Below, one piece after another: positions 898 to 55,520 of a stretch of 64,000 bases of DNA (positions within the stretch are counted from its first letter, which is position 1; the number at the start of each line of letters is the position of its first letter). Below the pieces are notes generated by a model. It saw nothing but the letters and a program-made list of their open reading frames with translations, was not told where the DNA came from and searched no databases. The position numbers were made by a program, and so were the translations under genes. The stretch is from Ornithodoros turicata (lineage: Eukaryota > Arthropoda > Arachnida > Ixodida > Argasidae): the NCBI RefSeq assembly GCF_037126465.1, contig NC_088204.1, positions 65,037,807 through 65,101,806 on the forward strand. Direction: 5' to 3'.

Positions 898-3360
898 CTA
901 TAACTTGATATGCCACTCACCTTCATCATGATCAAAGAGCCGAGTCGCTGTAAGCCAGCGGCGACAGCACTCCGCAGACCCAAATAATGACTGCTCACGG
1001 ATGATATGTGCACGCAGCCCGGCTCTCACTGCCTGAAAAATAGCCATGCTCCCAACATCTGGGCCACCAAAGGACAGGCGGCACCGGCGAATCCAAATTT
1101 GGAAGTTAATTTCCGAAATCAGCAATGCCAGTTGCTTCGGCTCTGCGCGTGCGACCGGCAACGGCTCCAGGTACCTTACGGTGGCCCAATCAACTGCTGG
1201 GAGCCCAAATATTTGCGCCGCCCTACTCCACAGTAGAAGTGGAATATGGCACCGCAAAAAACAATGTTCTGCTGTCTCAGATATGCCACAAGACGGACAA
1301 CCGTCCGTGCGACATATCCGAAAACGGTGCAAACGTTCACGCAGTGGGAGGACACCATGGGCCAGCTTCCACTGGAGACTAGCTCGCCGTGCATCAAGCC
1401 AGCCAGCAGTGATACGCCGCCAGGCGAATTTCGTTGGCACTGCTGGCCTTGCGGGACCCGGTCGCATTTCCCTGTAGGCAGCGTAGAAATCACGGACTCT
1501 CCACAAGGAAATGTCTTCATCTGGGCATTCGACACGCAAGCGCCGCACGACAGCAACACAAGCACAAAAATAAGCAGGGAGTACTTCTGCCCTGGGGAAG
1601 CTCGGGACTTTCGAGGAACCACCTGGTGGCGTATCCTAGGAAATACTGCACTAATGCGCAGGCAGGGTGCTCTGACGCACGGAGCGCCTCAAAGAGAATA
1701 CGCGATTGAAGCGCCAAGCACTTTTCTGACACAGCCGGTACTCCCAAGCCATCCAGATCACGGCTTCCGTGGAGTTGAGACCTACAGACCCATTCAACGG
1801 ATCCGCCCCACAGAAAGCGGAACGCGTGTCGTGTGATAGCTGCTTGTATTACCGCTTGCGGGGATGAAACAGCCGCTAAAAACCACAAGCGACTGTAATA
1901 CCATGCTGCTAACAGCCGTGCCCGAAAAGTGATCGGCAGTTCAACAAACTTAAGTTCTCGCAGCACAGCACTACAGCGGCTGAATACTCGAGGCCAGTTG
2001 ACAGCTGAGACCCCTGCACTGTCAAAAACAACCCCCAGGATTTTAACCTGAGGTCTTACAGGAACTTGAAACGGTGCAGCACAGGTTGGCTGAACATTTA
2101 AAAAAAGAGCGACACTTTTGGACCTATTCAATCTTGCCCCAGAAACTGTACCGTAGTCTTCGAACGCTTTCAACACTGGCTCTAGGGAACTCTCGCGAGG
2201 TAGTATGACGGAGGCATCATCAGCGTACGCAAACACAGGCAGTGGGCATCTATTGGGTAGCCTTAGGATGACTGAGAGAGAACACAGCCTCCCGAGGAGA
2301 GGGTTGATGGCAAGGGCACACAAGGCGGGGGAGAGAGGGCATCCTTGTCGGACAGCACACGTAACGTCAAACGGCAGGCCGAAAATTTGGCCGACCACTC
2401 TCATCTCATACAAAGAAGAAGTAGACGATAGACCACCAGCTATGGAAACGACACTTTTTGCGCCTTTGTATAGCACCTCAACGAAGCGCACCCAACCATT
2501 GGCGAAACCATATGCCCTCAGTGTTGAAAATAGGTACATGTGGCGCACACGATCGATGCCTTCGACTGATCGAAGGAAGCCACCACTGCTGCTGTGCGTG
2601 AACACATTATCCAATGGATGGCATCACGTAGCGCTATCCTGTGGAGGTCTGACGACCTGCCAGGCACCGAACACGCCTGGCACGGGTGTAGCACATTTTC
2701 TAAGTGCGGCGAAACACGCAAAAGAAGTGCCTTGGCTAAGTTTTTGTAGTCGCATGCCAATAGAGTGATAGGCCGGTATGCATCCGGATCGCGTTTTCTG
2801 GACGGGTCCTTGCTCAAGAGGACAACAACTCCACTCTGCATGCTAGAACATAGCATTCCTCGGGACAAGCACAGATTAAATACCCGAGTCAAGGAGTTAC
2901 CAATTACCCGCCAGAAACGTTTGTAGAACTCAACTGGGAGGCCATCAACGCCGGGACACTTTCCGTTCGGCCTTGAGGAGACAGCTGCTAGAATCGCTTG
3001 TTGCGTGAGCGGCCCCGAGCCTACATGCTCTATCTCTCTATCTTTTCCTCCGGCAGTGGGCACTCTCGGCTGATAACGGGCTCGTCGGGTGATGACTCCT
3101 CGTAAAGGGCCGCGCAATGCTCACGCATCGCTGCTTGAATGTCATCAGGTTCGGTTAGAAGTGAGCCGTCAAGTGACTGGAGCTCTGCTATGCTCGAGCC
3201 CGGATTTCCTGCCACATATCATGCGGGAGCAATAAGCTTCCCGACACCAGCGCTCTACGTTTCTTTGCGCTACGAACTTGCGTCAAGAGTGTATACGAAG
3301 AGACGCAAGGCGCCTTTGCACATCCTCTATCTCAGAGGCAGTATATGTATTGGCATCATC
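898..3360 (-). pseudogene. L1/Tx1-like LINE ORF2 remnant (RT plus zf-RVT)
   Basis: This is a degraded LINE polyprotein. From its 5' side it shows an RT entry segment with GKCPGVDGLPVEFYKRFW and YRPITLLACDYK (near 2950-2750), then motif A, ASFDQSKA, which continues in another frame as DRVRHMYLFSTLRAYGF (near 2540). RQGCPLSPALCALAINPLL and the catalytic FAYADD follow (near 2300-2210). After another frame change (near 1530) comes a C-terminal zinc-binding domain, LQWKLAHGVLPLRERLHRF then CPSCGISETAEHCFLRC (near 1400-1250). At least three frame changes (about 3060, 2540, 1530) break it. No endonuclease domain is recognisable upstream, so the copy is probably 5'-truncated. It would have copied its own RNA by target-primed reverse transcription. 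Confidence 0.88.
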
Positions 3361-17656: not shown

Positions 17657-20010
17657 TCAAAACTTGTTGTCTGCATCAATGTCCGGGAAAAATTTCACTA
17701 TGGCGGAGTACGCCCGGTGTCTGACACTGTGATTCCAGGGCCCAAGTACTTTTGAAACGCTGAAAGGACGGCCGTCCACTGCAGCCAGCTCGGACTGTAG
17801 AAGGCGACGAGCTTCTGTGTATCGTACGCAGGTCATCAAAATGTGCTCTACATCTTCCACAACACCGCACATGGAGCAGTTTGGTGAGGCTTTCCCGATC
17901 ATGTGTAGAAAGCTACGGCTGTATGGGACCTTCAGACGGAACCGGTGGATTAGGGTATCCAGGGAGGCTGGGACCACGAACGAAAAGTCTGGGTCTATGC
18001 TGGTCAGTGGCGGCCTTCCGGATTCACTGTGCCACAGGTCTCTGCTTAGTCTCTTCGTCAAAGTAGACAACATTAAGCGGGTGTCAGAGGGAGTAAAATA
18101 CACCTTACGAACCGGACCGGACGATGAGCCCGGGAAGCCGCTGCATACGGCACGTCGCTCCCAGGTATGCAGGAATAGCCAGGGATCCACTGAAGGATGA
18201 TGTCGTGTCCCTGTACTACACACGCGTTGTAAATCTTAATGGTGTCGTGTACGATTGAAGCAAGACCTGCTGATCCGCCCGGCGCTTATAATGCTCGGTC
18301 TGTGAATCACTGTAAACAACCCATGATTTGGGTCTGCTTCTGTAAATTGCATCGCAATGATCATCCCATGGAGCTCTGCGGCCTTGGACGAAGTGCGATG
18401 AGACAATCGTGCGCAGCCCTCAATGCAGAGCTCAGGAACGACATATGTTTTCTGGGTTGTCTACGTGGTATGGAGTAGCCGGCTTCCACGTTGGTGGTGC
18501 CAGTTTTCTCCATTTTTTTCTTTTTCACTCACTCACTCACTCACTCACTCACATATGCACACGTGGATCCTGACTCATCTGTAGACGTGTCCGTGAGAAT
18601 GCACACTCTGTCCCTTTGACTGTGCAGTACCTGAAGAGTTTGCTGACGCACAACACTTGACAGCACGAATTTTCTTCCCGTAAGACCCGATACTTTCGTG
18701 AACACCCGAGGCTGTAGCAAACCCAGGGAGGGCTTTAGTGCACCTTACAATGGCTTATGCCGGGGGACATAAGTGCGGCACGGCATAATAGCTTTATGGA
18801 ACCTCGAAAAACTTCGTGTCGAAATAGCGCTTGGGAGCGGCTGCCGACGAAATCTCGTTGTTAGTTTCAACGTAATGGCGAAGCGATTCTAATATCTGTA
18901 GCACAGGAAGTGTCCCGCCTCGGCTACGACAGCTGTATTGAACGCTGCTCTGAGAACTCCAAGGCAGATCTTGATGCTCTTTGCCAACGCACGTTCTAGA
19001 ATTATTTCGGACGACGGCGCTACATCATGAAGAACTGGGACGTGAAACGTGAGGGGATACCGTACCAATGCAGTATGTAGGGTAAACATTGATGAACATG
19101 ATGATCTCCATCGACAACCTGCCAAAAATCGCAGGATATTGGTACGAGCATGCAACTTGGTCTAGAGGCATAGGACTTCAGGTCTCCATGAGAGCGAACG
19201 ATCCACGATGACTCCAAGGAACGGGAGATGCGTAACTCGTGACATAGAATGTCCATTTACCTCCAGCTGTAACCTCGGCAACCGTTTCCGCGTGAACGGA
19301 AGGAAGACTGTCTTTACTGGAGAGACGTTCATCCCCCGCTCTGTGAGAAACCTCATCACCAGGTCAAGGGAGCCCTGTAGCCGGGTCTGCAGTGCTGGCC
19401 ATTGCTTCCCTGAAGTCCAGAGGCAGATATTATCCACACAGCTACTGATTTTTACTCCCCGAGGAAGCAACTGTGGCAGGAACGAGAGTACAACATTGAA
19501 GAGCAACGGACTGAGAACACCACATTGAGGCACTCCCGTTTCCTGTGCATGATAGTGGCTGTCACCGTTGCCTGTGCGCATGAACACCTTGCGATCCTGC
19601 AAATATGCCGTAATCCAACGAAATCTACGGACACTGTCATACGCACTCTTAATATCAAGGAAAACGGCGACCATTAGGCTCCGTTAGCCTGTTCTTCTTC
19701 AATACTTGTAACTATAGGTCGAGTATATGCAGCCCATTGCGCAGCGGGACTTCCGGAATCCTGCCATGCACTCCGGAAGGGACCTGTTTGACTTCAGTTA
19801 CCATTCGACTCTGTTGAGAATTAAACTCTCCATTATCTTGCACAAGCAGCTCGTCAGACTGACCGGGCGGAAGGAACCCAGCTCTCGTGGAGGCTTGCCT
19901 GGGTTCAAGACTGGAATGATCTGCAACGTCTTCCAGGATTCTGGGAGGACACCTTCACGCAAGCTCTTGTTGATCAAGTGTTCCACGTAATGCGGGATGG
20001 TCCTCCACAA
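17657..20010 (-). pseudogene. I-like LINE: RT, RNase H and C-terminal zinc segment
   Basis: This is the longest LINE coding remnant in the window. From 20010 downwards it holds an RT entry segment (LREGVLPESWKTLQIIPVL, FRPVSLTSCLCKIME), motif A FLDIKSAYDSV (19670), TGVPQCGVLSPLLFNVVL and the catalytic region as SCVDNICLW, where the usual D-D pair reads D-N. FLGVIVDRSLSWRPEV follows, then a thumb region (to 18889). RNase H appears as ILTDTSTDESGS (about 18590), SHRTSSKAAELHG (about 18420) and VVYSDSQ (about 18305). The end (18223-17657) has RFRLKVPYSRSFLH, CSMCGVVEDVEHILMTC and DGRPFSVSKVLGPW. Several frame changes and an insertion at 18470-18548 break it, and the altered catalytic D also implies it is dead. 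Confidence 0.88.
18470..18550 (+). repeat. LINE-like 3' tail, GGAGTAGCC family, copy 4, inserted in RNase H
   Basis: ggagtagccggcttccacg, tctccatttttttcttttt and a (CACT)n tail, in plus orientation. It sits inside a minus-strand LINE between the first and second RNase H acidic motifs, so it inserted after that LINE had landed. Confidence 0.75.
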
Positions 20011-41405: not shown

Positions 41406-41585
41406 TAACGGGTAAAATGGGAGGCGTACACCTTTTTGGGGGCATAAGTGCCACAAAAAAAGGCGTACGGCTCCTGTTTTCAGCAATTCAGGGCAGAGAG
41501 CGATGTCATTTGAAATGATGGTTAGGCAACAGGTGAAGTAACCGCCGTTCCGCTAACGGCCTTTGGTTTGCCGTCTGACTAAGGT
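41406..41585. repeat. Partial copy of the CCCTAGTC palindromic element
   Basis: gggaggcgtacacctt, gccacaaaaaaaggcgtac, gtcatttgaaatgatggtt, ccgttccgctaacgg and the end tttgccgtctgactaagg repeat the right half of the element at 53846-54362 in the same order. Most of the left arm is missing. Confidence 0.75.
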
Positions 41586-42510
41586 ATTAGCTGGCTACAT
41601 ACTCTGGCTCTGTGACTCGTGTGCACCAAGTGTGGACATAGTGTGGACAAGTGTGGGACACAGCCTAGCATGTGCAGAAACAGCTGTGTTCCACGTGGTT
41701 TGGGGTGTATACTTCAGTCAAGCGCAGATCCATGATCCTTCTGAGGGGGATGAGGGGCGTTCCAGTTTTGGGACGGCGTGCTACATATTCTGCGACACTG
41801 GCAAAGGTCAATAGAAGCATTGCGACAGAAGTCGAGGGAAGGGTCAGGACATCCGCCACTACCCTGTATCGGCCCCTGACCTGACCTAACCTAACCTAAA
41901 GTACACCTGAACACGCAAACGCCTGAGTGGCTCCAGTGAAATATGGTGACACCTTCCTTGATGCTGCGAGTGAGTCAGCGTAATGCTTGCGAGCCACACA
42001 TTTTGCGAATTCTAAGAGTACGCGCGAATTTCGAGCAAGAATTTGCCCTTCAACCACAATGCTGCGACTGCGAACTTCATTTTCGCAGTTAGTCGCACAC
42101 AGGTAAGCATTCTAACTGCTTTTCAGAGATCGTGTATAAAGCCGCTTTTATCAGGCGTGGTTGGGGTAATTGAAGGAGATTTACACGTAAGGGATGACAA
42201 TCTCGGGAGTGTATCACAAACTGAACCAATCGAGTCACAAATTTTTGCTCGCGCAGTTTGACGAAATTTAGTGACCGCAAATATGTGCTCGGCGTCCATT
42301 TCGCAAAAATTGTAGGTAGCGAAATAAAGGCTTTGACGTTACGGCTAAAAGGTAATTCTAGACGGGTGGCCCTGCGTCCTCGCAAATGAACAAGGTGAAG
42401 GGAGACATCGACGCAAGATTTCAAGAAACACGCCAGCCTAAGCCGCCGACGGTTTGGCGTCGAACAAGCCCTGTCCGCTATGAACAGAAAATATGTTTGT
42501 TTGTATGCTT
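41586..42510. other. No gene seen; short CCTAA run
   Basis: ctgacctaacctaacctaa (41882-41900) is a short run of the arthropod telomere unit CCTAA. ctatgtttcttgagttacgtgcc (42514-42536) recurs at 43234-43256. Frames at 41563-41884 are unrecognised. Confidence 0.4.
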
Positions 42511-46347: not shown

Positions 46348-46430
46348 TATAGTGTAAAAGACTGCCAAGGTTACTGCTCACTAGGTTTGCCAGTTTCCCT
46401 GCATGTATACCATTTAACGCTTTCGACGTT

Positions 46431-46577
46431 CTTCCGTGGCTATACTGCCACCGTGTTTTATGCCTCGTATATCGAATTTCTTAAGTGGCTATACTGCCAC
46501 CGTGTTTTATGCCTCGTATATCGAATTTCTTCCGTGGCTGTACTGCCACCGTGTTTATGCCTCTTATATCGAATTTT
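46431..46577 (+). repeat. 49-bp minisatellite, 3 units
   Basis: ttccgtggctatactgccac...gtatatcgaatttc repeats with an exact 49-bp step (46431, 46480, 46529). Units differ by a few substitutions; the third has lost one T. Confidence 0.9.
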
Positions 46578-47210
46578 TCCCCCCAGTCCCATTTACTTCG
46601 TAATAGCGAGGGTTTACCTTAGTTCTATTTCACTAATATTACGCAGTGTAAATAGAGCACTATTGCGTGGACCGTTATGTTATGATCACGTGTAACTCCT
46701 ATATAAATAACAACGTTCATGGAGATGGGAATGCGTTTTTCTTGTTTCCGAACACGCGGCAGTCCTGGAGGTGGTCAACCATGGACAACGTCCCTTCTTC
46801 CAGGTGGTCGTCACTTGCGAGGTCGTCGCTACCTGCAAATTGTCAAGATATTTATCAGGTGAATTTTGCATGATTTCGTGAAAAGAGGGCATCGACATGC
46901 AGCCATATCTCATTAGGCGAGCTCTACCAGACCTAAAGGAGGTAAGAACTCCTATCTGCATGTATTTAGTTACGGGTGTGTGATATTGTTCTTCTACGCT
47001 TCGTAATTCTATTTACAATTTATTGTTCAATACTTCTCCTTCATAACATGTGCAGCGTTAATACAAAAACGCACTTTTTTCGGATACGGGCGAGTAGACG
47101 TACCGCTATCTAGATACCACTATCCATCGTTACGTCATCTGAAGAATTGTTGCACCCAATCAGACGTCAACGCGGAGGTACACATAACGTTCTGCTCTAC
47201 TCTCTTGAGA
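46578..47210. other. No gene seen
   Basis: Nothing recognised. A GGT/GATG microsatellite starts at 47212. Confidence 0.4.
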
Positions 47211-50751: not shown

Positions 50752-51173
50752 TTAGCACGCACACACACACTCCACAAGTATCGTTAAGGTTGCAGGAATC
50801 CACCGGCAGTCGGTACGTGTCAGCCAGTCCCGACAGTGCCATCGAAGTATGGTCTTTTCCGCTGAGGACTTCTCCTTGCACGTCATGCCCGCGGGAAACG
50901 AACAGGACCTGCCGTTGTAGCATCGCCCATCGCGTATCCATCGAGGCCAAAATCTTATGCCAAGGTCCTTCCAGCGGTACACCAGGGGACAGTATGTGTA
51001 TGTCCACAGCAGTTGCCGCATCTTGCGTCGCAATCGACGTCCGGCGTCGAGGCGGACGTTATGTCCACCGGGAAAGTGGAGGTTACGAAGACGTAGCTTC
51101 TGGATATCGCGCGGCATCTTGCTCTTGGGAACAAGGCGGCCGCGCTTGAGGCGGAATCCTGGTTGGAGTGTAC
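50752..51173 (-). CDS. nog: noggin, coding exon 2 (cysteine-rich domain)
   Basis: This exon encodes residues 94-233 of noggin, the secreted antagonist that binds BMP ligands and blocks their receptor contacts. It starts in phase 1 after the acceptor CTTCTCCCACAG. A basic stretch (DAGRRLRRKM) corresponds to the heparan-sulfate-binding region of the family. It is followed by TYCPLVYRWKDLGIRFWPRW, GRCYNGRSCSFPAGMTC, LRWHC, CRWIP and the terminal ECVCAC before TAA (50752-50754). All nine cysteines of the noggin C-terminal domain are present and in order. An (AC)n-looking tract at 50757-50770 is simply the codons of the last cysteines. No stop or frame change occurs, so the gene looks functional. 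A long plus-strand frame here is only an antisense shadow. Confidence 0.96.
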
Positions 51174-53384
51174 CTGTGGGAGAAGCAAGTCGGAACTAGT
51201 TACAAAAAAACAACTATTTGCAGCAACGGAATGGCATCGGCATATTTGACGAAGAAAAAAAAAAAAAGAATGTCGTGAAGTTAACCCTCGTGTGCAGCTA
51301 ATAGTGCATGGAGTGTACGGACCTTTTTAATAATGTTAGCATAGCTTTAAAGAACCGTTGTATTTGTGAGACGTTTATACAATGCGTCGGTTTGTAATGA
51401 AAGAACCCACTATTTGTGTTGTTAAAATTTATGTAGTGACTGTACAGAACAGAATCGAATAAGTTTTGATGATGAACACAAGCAGTATATCGTATACATT
51501 TTTTTCACGTGTCCGTCATTAAAGTTCTAATAAGCGTAGCTCGCAGATTCTGCACGAAATCTCGTCATTAAACTTAAACGCTCTTAACCATGCATGTAAG
51601 TTTTATTCTGACTATACCTGTTTTTTTTTGTTTTTTTTTTCATTTCGGTAACTCTCAACTTAACTCGGTGCTTTCCTGTTCTAGTAGCTTGTGGAAGAAC
51701 TACTTGTTGAAGTATCTTCGCCAATGTAACTTGAGCAAAGTCACAAGTTACTTTCTTTTTATTTTTATTTTTGTATTTTATAAAAGGCGATGGCAGTCAG
51801 CCCGCCGCTTGCACGCGCACGGCACCTGATTGTCTGCTTCCCTTTCTAGTCGCTGCGCGATGTACGCTACAGAGTTTCCGGCGTGTGTTTGAGAGTCAGG
51901 TGTCAGACAGGGCCACATTTGGCAAGGTTCTGTGAAATGTGCACGAAAGAGAGAGACTAGATCACAAAACTTGAAATTCCGATGCTTGCTTTGTACCCCA
52001 TTGACAAAGTAAGGTTATCCCACGCGAACCAATAAGGAAGCACATAAAACTACGGCTTCTTCCGTCAAACAGATCATCGATATATTTTTGGCCTAGTTTG
52101 ATAATGCTTTGCTGTCTCATACGACTTCGAGGGGTTTTTTGTGCGTGTATTTGCTTTCTGTCATAAGCTTATTCTCATTGTGAGAGCAATAATGTTGTGT
52201 ATTAACGTGCTTAAGCAAAGTATTCGGGAACCTTCACCGTTCAAACTCCGTCTCGGGTGCCGAGACTGAATAGTCCCTGATACCCAAAGCATTCTGAGCC
52301 TGTTGCTGTCCCCCGCTCCCAACTGTGATGGCACCAAGGTCTGAACGGATTACGCATGCATAGGTCAAGACCTAATTACGGCATGGTATACCAAGTAACT
52401 TGGACATAACTCCATCCCTTTCCTAAGTAACTGAAGAGTAGCCAGTAACTTGGAGTAGCCAATCCTGACGGGGTCGGGACTAACCTCTCCATATTTTTCT
52501 TTCATATCCAATCCAATCCAATAATTTTCAGAACTTGTAACTTGACTAATAACTTAGTTACAATTTCAGCTAAATAGCGTGACTCGTAACTAGTTCCTTT
52601 TAACTTCCGCATCTCTGGTTTTAACACTGCGCACAAAAGAATATGCAAAAAGTCGCGTAAGCAAGAAAGAGCTCCGCTCACACTACGAATGCGCAGCAAG
52701 CAACCACAATTTTGCGCCTTGCGTATACACTATTTTTCGGATTTGCGGGTTTGCTGCTTTGCTGTTAACTCTTTGCAATGAACCGGCCTGCTCGATATCT
52801 TATAGTCTTCGCACCTTCCACTGCAACCCTGAACACTTTCTCGATTTTCTTCCTTTCTGCATTTTTTTAATTATCATTATGATCCTCAACGATCTATAGA
52901 TCGAACGGCTGTGAGATAACGTTCTGTTCCCATAGAGAAGGAAATTTCTCGGCATGGTTAAATGTCTCGTAAATCATCGTCATGATTTCGTTGCTGTTGT
53001 TTCTGTTTCGCGTGTTCATTGCTTCCCATGGTATCTATAAGTCACCAGAACATCCTGATTGAATCTCTCTGTATTGCTATTACTTTCCCCACCGCGATAT
53101 GTCTAGAACACTTCAGGCGCCTAAGCCCCTTGGATTCATGATGTCAGTTAACCTAACCACAAGATTCAGCGGCTAACACTACTTTATCATACCATAAAAG
53201 GGAAATGGGACATGTATTTGACATGTGCGATCTGCATAGAATGGAATAGAATAGAAATAGAAAGAAAAAAATAGAAACGTAGGTCGCACTAGTGCGACCA
53301 GCTGTTCCAGGACGCTTGACGTGTGACAGCACTGAATGACGCGATCTGCAATATTCTCATGGTGACGTATTTGAAGTAGAATAC
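51174..53384 (-). other. nog: noggin intron (2.2 kb)
   Basis: Donor AACG|GTATTC at 53384-53383 and acceptor CCCACAG| ending at 51174. The intron holds T-rich tracts (51618-51640), an open but unrecognised stretch (51590-51829) and a GGAGTAGCC-family tail (52443-52525). No other gene was seen. Confidence 0.85.
52443..52525 (+). repeat. LINE-like 3' tail, GGAGTAGCC family, copy 5
   Basis: ggagtagccaatcctgacgg, gggactaacctctcc, T-rich, (CCAAT)n tail. It lies in the noggin intron, antisense to the gene. Confidence 0.7.
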
Positions 53385-53664
53385 CGTTTGGATGTCGTAT
53401 GCTTTCTTTGGGTCTGTGCAATGACATGACATTGGCGTCGAAGCGGTGCCCCAGCAGCTTCTTCAGGTGAACGGGATCGAGGTCTTGAGGCCCGGGGTCG
53501 TACATGCGGTCGGGGGATTCGATGAGGTCGATGACCGGGAGGTCATGGGAGGGCGCTGGTCGCAGGGCCCCTTGGGGATGCCAGGCCCCCCCAGGACAAC
53601 AGAGGACAGCAACCAGCACAAACCACACAACAGGTAACGGGCCACGCTGACGCAGTGGGGGCAT
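53385..53664 (-). CDS. nog: noggin, coding exon 1 (signal peptide and N-terminal clip)
   Basis: This exon encodes residues 1-93 plus one base of the next codon. A signal peptide has the core PVVWFVLVAVLCC. After it comes LRPAPSHDLPVIDLIESPD, the strongly conserved noggin N-terminal segment that wraps the BMP ligand in the known structure, then DLDPVHLKKLLGHRFDANVM. Reading past 53385 gives sequence that loses noggin character, placing the donor at CCAAACG|GTATTC. Joined to 51173-50752 the CDS is 702 bp, 234 codons with the stop, one residue longer than human noggin. A splice acceptor (ttcaatttcag) abuts the ATG. The organism's noggin is thus split by an intron, unlike the single-exon vertebrate genes. 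Confidence 0.95.
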
Positions 53665-53665
53665 T

Positions 53666-53690
53666 CTGAAATTGAAGTGGACGTAATGAG
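53666..53690 (-). promoter_or_regulatory. Probable splice acceptor before the noggin start
   Basis: On the minus strand cgtccacttcaatttcag ends one base before the ATG. It implies a 5' non-coding exon further upstream (higher coordinates), so the promoter is not adjacent. Confidence 0.5.
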
Positions 53691-53845
53691 AGCTGGGTAC
53701 CTTAAAATAGGTACATTCAACCAGTTATGGAGCAATTCTCGTTACCACAAGTCATTGTTCACACGGTGTTTCACTTTCTTGCCGCAAAACGGGCAACCAC
53801 GTACCACGTCAATTCCTGCCCTGGTAACCATACAGGGAACGAGTA

Positions 53846-54362
53846 ATACCCTAGTCAGACGGCAAACCTAAGTCCATAGTGGGCCGTCACCACTGCGCTC
53901 CTCCGCTTTCTCCACGCTTCGAACCTTGTCAACGCCTTGTGATTGTGTAACCGTGTGTGTGATTTTTCAGTTTTAGTTTTGTGTTCTTCTTTTTTCTTTT
54001 CTTTTTCTCTCCCTTGGTTTTGGAATAGCAAGCCGACCACCGTCTGGCTGACCTTTCGTCCCTTTTTTTTCTTAACAAACATATATCCCCCAAGTCCGTT
54101 AACGGAACGGCCGTTACCTCGCCCGTAGTCCAATCATGATTTCGAATGGCATTGTTCTCTGTCCTGATTTGTTGAAAATGGGAGGCGTACATCTTTTTTT
54201 GTTATAATTACGCAGTCCATAATTGCCACAAAAAAGACGAACGCCTCCTGTTTTCAACAAATCTGGACAGAGAGTGATATCATTCGAAATGATGGTTGGA
54301 CTACAGGCGAAGTAATGGCCGTTCCGCTAACGGACTTAGGTTTGCCGACTGACTAGGGTATA
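53846..54362. mobile_element. Palindromic element, CCCTAGTCAGACGG ends, split by an insertion
   Basis: The left end ACCCTAGTCAGACGGCAAACC (53847-53868) matches the inverted right end (54340-54361). The arms pair through ccgttaacggaacggcc, ttcgaatg and gggaggcgtac segments around a centre near 54205. The left arm is interrupted at AAGTCC by 216 bp (53876-54091). A partial copy lies at 41406-41585. TA dinucleotides flank the ends. Confidence 0.8.
53876..54091 (+). repeat. LINE 3'-tail copy nested in a palindromic element
   Basis: atagtgggccgtcaccactg, pyrimidine-rich DNA, ggaatagcaagccgaccacc, tggctgacctttcg, T-rich, tatatccccc. AAGTCC is duplicated at both sides (53870-53875, 54092-54097), a short target duplication. 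Same family as 26400-26470. Confidence 0.8.
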
Positions 54363-54364
54363 AT

Positions 54365-55520
54365 TCTACCGCCCATATGAACGAGAACGTAACTTTGAAC
54401 GGCTCGTTTATTTCTAATATATCAAAGAACTTTGTCCGGGTATTATACGAGACTGACGCTACACATTCTCGGAACAACAGAGCTAGAAATCAGCATAACC
54501 CGCTTCGAAGTACTTCCCTTGGAAGCCAAGCACGGCTGGAGATGTTCCGTTCGCCGTTGAGAAACAAATTCCTGGTAAGGAATACATTAACCGTCCAGAA
54601 AAGAACTGATGATGGAAGATTGAAATAAGGCAGTCGTGGAAAAGATTTGAAAGCAGCATGAACCAAACCCGCACCTCTTGATTACCGGTTAAAGTTGTGT
54701 TGTGTTGTGTATTGTGTTGGTCAGAGTGAGTGTTCCAGCCTCAGAACATTTAGTTTCCATCATTTCCAAATCATGATGATGAACATATTCTTTTTATTGT
54801 TGATGGCACTCCGCACTTTGTCGTCTGGTACCAGTACCGTACCGTACTCAAAAAATCGCAAAAATACAAACTTGAAAAAAAGATATAAAAAATCGACTGT
54901 TGGTCTTTCGTTATGCAATGCTCTAAAAAAGAAAAAAATAGAGAAAGAAAGGGTTCACCGTTTGTTCGTCGCAGAGGTTTCTTGGAGGGATCACAGCACG
55001 CACTTTCCGCAAGTCCAACTTCTAGGTCTGAATGTCATAAACTGTTCGGCGATTCAAATTCTAATCAGTATAACGGTCGCTCTGGCTGTCTAACGTGCAA
55101 CAAACCCCACAAGAACACTCAGGTTTGTCACATTTTGACGTACAAGGTCTTCGAGAGAGAGGATCCACATGGACACTCCCACCACCACCCAAGATGCTTT
55201 ATGCTGTCTCAACACTGCGCCGTGGACAGAGTACCCTCTTTCCAGAGTTTTCCGTTGCGTTTTCGATAGGTAGCTCTCGCGCAGCGCTGTTCGAGATACC
55301 CGTTTTCGCAACGCGGTGTCAGATCAAACTTGTTAAGTGGGCAAGGCACCCTTTAGGCCTCGCATACATAAAAAAAAAAAAAAAGGAAGAAAGAAGAAAT
55401 TGCGAGGAACCTTTTAACTTGCGTGAAACATGTCTTTGTTGGTAGGTTTCAGCGACTTCTAGTGTTTCGTGCGGCTAGGTCTTTTAGACCTTTCCTTTCT
55501 TCTTTGTTGGCCCAGAAACT
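54365..55520. other. No gene seen
   Basis: Frames on both strands (54377-54628, 54695-55269) have no recognised domain. GTGTT tract at 54694-54720 and an A run at 55370-55384. Confidence 0.4.

What the first reader, a model, noticed from the sequence alone, without database searches (positions are those of the whole stretch)
50752..53664. Intact noggin gene with an intron within the coding region
Two exons in phase 1 join into 234 codons with all nine cysteines and the conserved N-terminal segment, in a window otherwise full of dead transposons. Vertebrate noggins are single-exon and Drosophila lacks noggin, so an intron-split arthropod-type noggin bears on how this BMP antagonist evolved.
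Basis: partly seen in the sequence, partly recalled or inferred. Interest (0 to 1): 0.85.

Follow-up and report, generated by a model that had tools for sequence, protein, structure and literature searches.

The report
Tick noggin gene with one intron
This stretch of a soft-tick genome holds one intact noggin gene, a secreted blocker of BMP growth signals, split by one intron that hard-tick gene models suggest is shared; the protein is ordinary, but a paper says noggin genes have no introns.

Summary
Two minus-strand exons (53664-53385, 51173-50752) with a 2,211-bp GT-AG phase-1 intron give a 233-aa protein. It matches Pfam Noggin (E 5.5e-68) and noggin in PDB 1m4u (E 1.7e-44), and equals "noggin-2-like [Ornithodoros turicata]" already in NCBI, so the gene is annotated. 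The genome search found only these two exons as noggin matches, so the gene looks single-copy. Noggin is common in arthropods and reported lost in most holometabolous insects. The intron is the interesting part: PMC7483449 states that all known noggin genes lack introns. It splits the Gly codon of an HPN-G-T motif kept in many protostome noggins. Two short public gene models from hard ticks (Rhipicephalus sanguineus, R. appendiculatus) stop matching exactly at that Gly, so the intron is probably shared by soft and hard ticks and not a recent insertion. Their DNA was not seen, nor any transcript. Whether the intron was gained in ticks or lost elsewhere could not be tested, since no other animal genome DNA was reachable. 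The protein should work as a normal BMP antagonist: clip residues, nine cysteines and predicted fold are kept; binding is untested.

The parts
53385..53664 (-). Coding exon 1 of noggin: hydrophobic N-terminus (likely signal peptide), BMP-binding clip segment, N-terminal helical part, up to the first base of the Gly94 codon
   Evidence: Open frame from ATG; Pfam Noggin E 8.8e-17 on the exon-1 frame alone; genome search match at G000:C4:65091198-65091410
51174..53384 (-). Phase-1 GT-AG intron, 2,211 nt, splitting the Gly codon of HPN-G-T; 41% GC against 59% in the coding sequence
   Evidence: Splice analysis, GC; one 48-bp match of 79% elsewhere in the window; none of the inverted repeats of 16 nt or more listed lies at its two ends
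50752..51173 (-). Coding exon 2 of noggin: linker, basic helix, nine-cysteine cystine-knot domain, TAA stop
   Evidence: Pfam Noggin E 6.9e-46 on the exon-2 frame alone; PDB 1m4u alignment to the last residue; genome search match at G000:C4:65088561-65088956

Best explanation
This is the single noggin gene of a soft tick, almost certainly Ornithodoros turicata. It is made as a pre-mRNA with two coding exons. Splicing removes a 2.2-kb phase-1 intron between the N-terminal clip part and the cystine-knot part. The product is secreted, forms a cystine-knot dimer and captures BMP ligands such as Dpp/Gbb, so that they cannot reach their receptors. The intron lies in a linker and does not alter the protein. 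It was present before soft and hard ticks parted. Shown here: gene structure in the DNA, family, one copy among the scored candidates, fold resemblance. Inferred: splicing in vivo, secretion, dimerisation, BMP binding, and the intron age (from protein models only).
For:: of five frame-keeping donors only the first gives HPNGT. Pfam Noggin, sole family for the joined protein; 1m4u E 1.7e-44. P0001, O. turicata noggin-2-like, 100% over 233 aa; named hard-tick noggins of Ixodes scapularis 70% and Rhipicephalus microplus 69% over 90% and 84% of the query; these two and three unnamed rows that group with them (P0003, P0005, P0006) match 15-17 of 21 residues across the junction; the own-genome search finds 2 Noggin matches, both exons of this gene (12 of 12 candidates scored); the exon-1 search gave two short proteins (P0129, P0130) and both part from full-length tick noggin exactly after the same Gly; P0130 then ends in K, as read-through of G|GTAAGT plus a stop would; residues equivalent to human Pro35, Leu46, Glu48 kept; fold matches 1m4u best (E 5.6e-14, TM 0.72 by target length); in the tree it joins the five hard-tick-type rows (100/99).
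Against: No transcript was seen: the P0001 cluster holds one sequence, held by NCBI and UniRef only. The donor has T at +5. The two short tick models are other people's predictions whose DNA I could not read, from one genus, so they are little more than one observation; P0129 ends in IESEL, which could be a wrong extra exon or read-through. The search profile itself ends at HPNG, so the break was judged against full-length proteins. Structure: only one of five models is good (mean pLDDT 76.5; the others 42-56), residues 23-38 are under 50, and the match to 1m4u has an rmsd of 9.1 with TM 0.63 by query length. BMP binding is untested, and the spider noggin-D is expressed where Dpp is active, so the role in chelicerates may have drifted (PMC11083766, passages). 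The clip was not essential in aphid ApNL1 (PMC9071555).
Confidence: 0.9

Rival explanations
1. An ancestrally intronless noggin was split by a recent insertion (a transposon or other DNA) in this tick alone, either spliced out by luck or killing the gene.
For: The window carries transposon remains and an inverted-repeat element close by. PMC7483449 says noggins lack introns.
Against: Both exons are intact with no stop inside the joined frame. The intron has one 48-bp match in the window and none of the listed inverted repeats at its ends; target-site duplications and genome-wide copies were not tested. Two hard-tick models break at the same codon. NCBI has the same spliced protein.
Confidence: 0.06
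2. It is a clip-less Noggin-like or Trunk/PTTH-type ligand that acts on a receptor tyrosine kinase and not on BMPs.
For: Arthropods have such relatives; the aphid noggin ApNL1 also shows weak MAPK activity (PMC9071555).
Against: The clip segment is present with the Pro, Leu and Glu named as critical in human noggin. Pfam gives Noggin as the only family for the joined protein.
Confidence: 0.04
3. The coding region is right but the gene has further exons, for instance a 5'-UTR intron ending just before the ATG, and other isoforms. This is an extension of the main reading, not an alternative to it.
For: The sequence ATTTCAG|A lies directly before the ATG and looks like an acceptor. Some arthropod noggins carry isoform labels.
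Against: No transcript was available. The NCBI protein starts at the same Met.
Confidence: 0.5

Closest known systems
noggin-2-like [Ornithodoros turicata], NCBI (P0001)
   Same: Identical over all 233 residues
   Different: Nothing at protein level; its annotated exon structure was not readable here
Noggin-2 of Ixodes scapularis (P0002) and noggin of Rhipicephalus microplus (P0004)
   Same: 70% and 69% identical over the aligned part; same HPNG[ST]L linker, clip and nine cysteines
   Different: Longer N-terminal part; one residue more between two cysteines (SRRSC for GRSC)
Human noggin (PDB 1m4u, 7ag0)
   Same: Clip, basic helix and cystine knot align along the chain; closest fold
   Different: The human linker has a glycine-rich stretch in place of HPNGT; known noggin genes are reported as intronless
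Pea aphid ApNL1 (PMC9071555)
   Same: Arthropod noggin with a clip; shown to antagonise BMP in Xenopus
   Different: Different lineage; also weak MAPK activity; gene structure not discussed (no match for intron or exon in the main text)

Membership tests
Noggin (PF05806) | Match to the family profile over its length | tested here: met
   229.4 bits against a cut-off of 24.1; profile positions 10-211 of 211
Noggin (PF05806) | Nine cysteines of the C-terminal knot | tested here: met
   All nine present and in conserved columns, each kept in 124-128 of 128 aligned proteins
Noggin (PF05806) | N-terminal clip with Pro, Leu and Glu equivalent to human 35, 46, 48 | tested here: met
   P36, L47, E49 by the 1m4u alignment (numbering offset inferred), kept in 118, 118 and 122 of 128; importance of the residues as told in PMC9071555
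Noggin (PF05806) | Secretion signal | tested here: inconclusive
   Strongly hydrophobic stretch at residues 12-22; no signal-peptide predictor available
Noggin (PF05806) | Noggin fold | tested here: met
   1m4u and 7ag0 rank first (E 5.6e-14 and 1.0e-10), the only two under E 0.001; next match E 0.02. Model confidence moderate, one good model of five
Noggin (PF05806) | Binds and blocks BMP | not testable with these tools
   Needs an assay
Noggin genes as described in PMC7483449 | No intron in the coding sequence | tested here: not met
   2,211-bp phase-1 intron. This is a printed generalisation about known genes, not a defining feature of the family
Noggin-like / Trunk / PTTH (clip-less) | Lack of the clip segment | tested here: not met
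   Clip present

The most novel reading that the evidence does not exclude
The linker intron at the Gly of PNG[ST] is an old arthropod or even protostome intron, and the intronless noggins of vertebrates and others are the derived state (loss or retroposition). The view of noggin as an intronless gene would then be a sampling effect.
Probability: 0.25. Interest if true: 0.5.

Novelty: new member of a known kind. Interest (0 to 1): 0.35.

Why it matters
Noggin is a classic BMP antagonist, and a 2020 paper (PMC7483449) used the rule that noggins have no introns to screen genomes. A tick noggin with an intron in the coding region, probably shared by soft and hard ticks, breaks that rule, warns that single-frame searches will miss or truncate such genes (two public Rhipicephalus models look truncated at this point), and gives a simple marker for tracing intron gain or loss in noggin evolution.

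Tried and rejected
Recent-insertion reading: judged unlikely on the shared break point in two Rhipicephalus models and the lack of inverted repeats at the intron ends. Copies of the intron elsewhere in the genome and target-site duplications were not tested.

Other donors: with this acceptor, four further GT donors downstream of the chosen one keep the frame; they add 6, 19, 54 and 64 residues of intron sequence and break the HPNG[ST]L linker kept in other ticks. Donors in the first 150 nt and other acceptors were not examined.

Spider models P0104 and P0122 were checked as possible signs of an intron at the junction; they depart from the Argiope protein P0045 at its residues 193 and 190, inside the cystine knot and not at the junction, so they say nothing here.

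Scans for noggin loci with DNA in the viral and prokaryote collections gave no relative. No animal genome other than the window's own could be read, so intron positions in other animals were not compared. tRNA and Rfam scans of the window gave nothing.

Literature: the ten searches listed no paper that I recognised as describing an intron in a noggin coding region. Lists were cut to 10-40 titles, the library lacks most subscription journals, and I read only the passages and sections named (PMC11083766, PMC4244043, PMC7522025, PMC5644144, PMC8152183: passages; PMC7483449: passages and section 6; PMC9071555: outline with abstract, introduction, passages).

Full report
What is there. On the minus strand, an ATG at 53664 opens a frame that runs 280 nt to a GT donor at 53384; after 2,211 nt an AG acceptor at 51175-51174 opens exon 2, which runs 422 nt to a TAA ending at 50752. 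The joined frame is 702 nt, 233 residues plus stop. The intron is phase 1: exon 1 gives the first base of a Gly codon and exon 2 the other two.

It is noggin. The joined protein matches Pfam Noggin over profile positions 10-211 of 211 (E 5.5e-68); each exon frame alone also matches (6.9e-46 and 8.8e-17). In the PDB, noggin of entry 1m4u (complex with BMP-7, title) matches with E 1.7e-44. In the protein search, 43 of 218 candidates reached E 1e-3; the best is noggin-2-like of Ornithodoros turicata, identical over all 233 residues, followed by noggins of Ixodes scapularis (70%) and Rhipicephalus microplus (69%) and three rows without an organism (67-70%). The window is therefore almost certainly from O. 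turicata, a soft tick (taxonomy), and the gene is already in NCBI. The window's genome, unnamed in the tool, is 1.07 Gb in 379 contigs; the Noggin family gave two matches in it, both exons of this gene, and none in the 14 control genomes. That search scores only the best candidates (12 of 12 here), so it argues for, but does not prove, a single copy.

The splice. With the acceptor fixed, five GT donors past nt 150 of the exon-1 open frame keep the joined frame. Only the first yields ...RPKESIRHPNG-TLQPGFRL..., which Ixodes, R. microplus and the three unnamed rows match at 15-17 of 21 positions. PNG[ST] occurs in 30 of 43 proteins of the first search and in 58 of the 128 proteins listed by both searches (one search lists 120 of its 227). 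It is absent, for example, in the listed Lycorma, Blattella, Lethenteron and Callorhinchus proteins. The motif is an N-glycosylation sequon (general knowledge), and the intron cuts it. The donor is weak at +5, the acceptor good (by eye). No transcript was available to me.

Is the intron old? I could read no other animal DNA. Two proteins reached E 1e-3 among 6,230 candidates: P0129 of Rhipicephalus sanguineus (135 aa) and P0130 of R. appendiculatus (130 aa). The profile ends at HPNG, so I compared them with full-length tick noggins: both agree up to HPNG and then part, exactly at the codon split in the window; P0130 ends with K, P0129 with IESEL. G-K-end is what read-through of a donor G|GTAAGT followed by a stop would give; that step is inference, as the DNA was not seen. 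The related R. microplus protein continues through the junction (P0004). The simplest reading is that hard ticks have an intron at this same place and phase, and that two annotations failed to splice it. The two species are of one genus, so this counts as little more than one observation of position. The lack of such hits from other lineages means nothing either way. Several other arthropod noggins bear isoform labels (for example Folsomia candida, Daphnia pulex, Thrips palmi), which hints at introns in those genes too; that is a lead only.

Against print. PMC7483449 (section 6 read; [quoted passage not shown] The tick gene is a counter-example. Presence of noggin in arthropods is not news: PMC4244043 reports it in a centipede and its loss in most holometabolous insects (passage), PMC11083766 describes noggin-D in a spider (passages), PMC5644144 mentions a noggin-like gene in a springtail (passage), and PMC9071555 tests two aphid proteins (abstract, introduction and passages). 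A search for noggin with tick and Ixodes listed one paper, the centipede genome.

How it works. The residues equivalent to human Pro35, Leu46 and Glu48, reported as needed for BMP-7 binding (as told in PMC9071555), are P36, L47 and E49 here. The nine knot cysteines are in columns kept in 124-128 of 128 proteins. The best predicted structure (mean pLDDT 76.5, pTM 0.61; the other four models 42-56; clip region poorly placed) finds 1m4u and 7ag0 as the only matches under E 0.001, with rmsd 9.1 and 10.9, so the domains agree better than the whole. A secreted dimer that wraps BMP ligands is the best-supported function. ApNL1 of the aphid, an arthropod noggin, does block BMP in Xenopus, though also without its clip, more weakly. 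The biological role in ticks is unknown; in a spider noggin-D sits on the dorsal, Dpp-active side.

Tree. A maximum-likelihood tree of 38 of the 128 proteins, drawn with a midpoint root, groups the gene with Ixodes, R. microplus and the three unnamed rows (100/99) and these with other chelicerates (89/93): vertical descent, nothing odd. Several deeper forks are open and four end branches are long, as the program says.

Surroundings. Of 82 stop-to-stop frames of 110 residues or more I scanned 30 against Pfam besides the two noggin exon frames. Six of 30 had a match at E 0.01, all reverse transcriptase, zf-RVT or RNase H, three of them above the curated cut-off. No other host gene was recognised among those 30. 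So transposon remains are there, though most of the window is unassigned, and 'full of dead transposons' was not established.

Verdict. A real, intact, ordinary arthropod noggin, already in NCBI; the intron passes the sequence tests made here, contradicts a printed rule, and is probably shared across ticks. Its origin is the open question.

Noticed in passing
53665-53680: The ATG is directly preceded by ATTTCAG|A, which looks like a splice acceptor; the gene may have a 5'-UTR intron ending one base before the start codon.
   Followed up: no
53841-54366: A 526-bp stretch with 35-bp terminal inverted repeats (91%) and an inner 111-bp inverted repeat (85%) lies about 180 bp upstream of the noggin ATG; parts recur near 41414-41589. 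It looks like a MITE or foldback element.
   Followed up: partly
901-3120 and 19165-19683: Reverse-transcriptase and zf-RVT frames, spread over several frames, probably retrotransposon remains.
   Followed up: partly
P0129, P0130 (protein models, no locus): Public noggin models of Rhipicephalus sanguineus and R. appendiculatus look truncated at the intron and lack the cystine-knot part.
   Followed up: partly
P0104, P0122 (spider protein models): Noggin models of Argiope bruennichi and Caerostris extrusa go off inside the cystine knot, probably a wrong splice and a frameshift.
   Followed up: partly
P0109 (Halyomorpha halys): A 458-aa model carries both Noggin and PF00335 domains, probably two genes fused by annotation.
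   Followed up: no
46429-46580: Tandem array of a 49-bp unit, about 3 copies, 92% matches.
   Followed up: no
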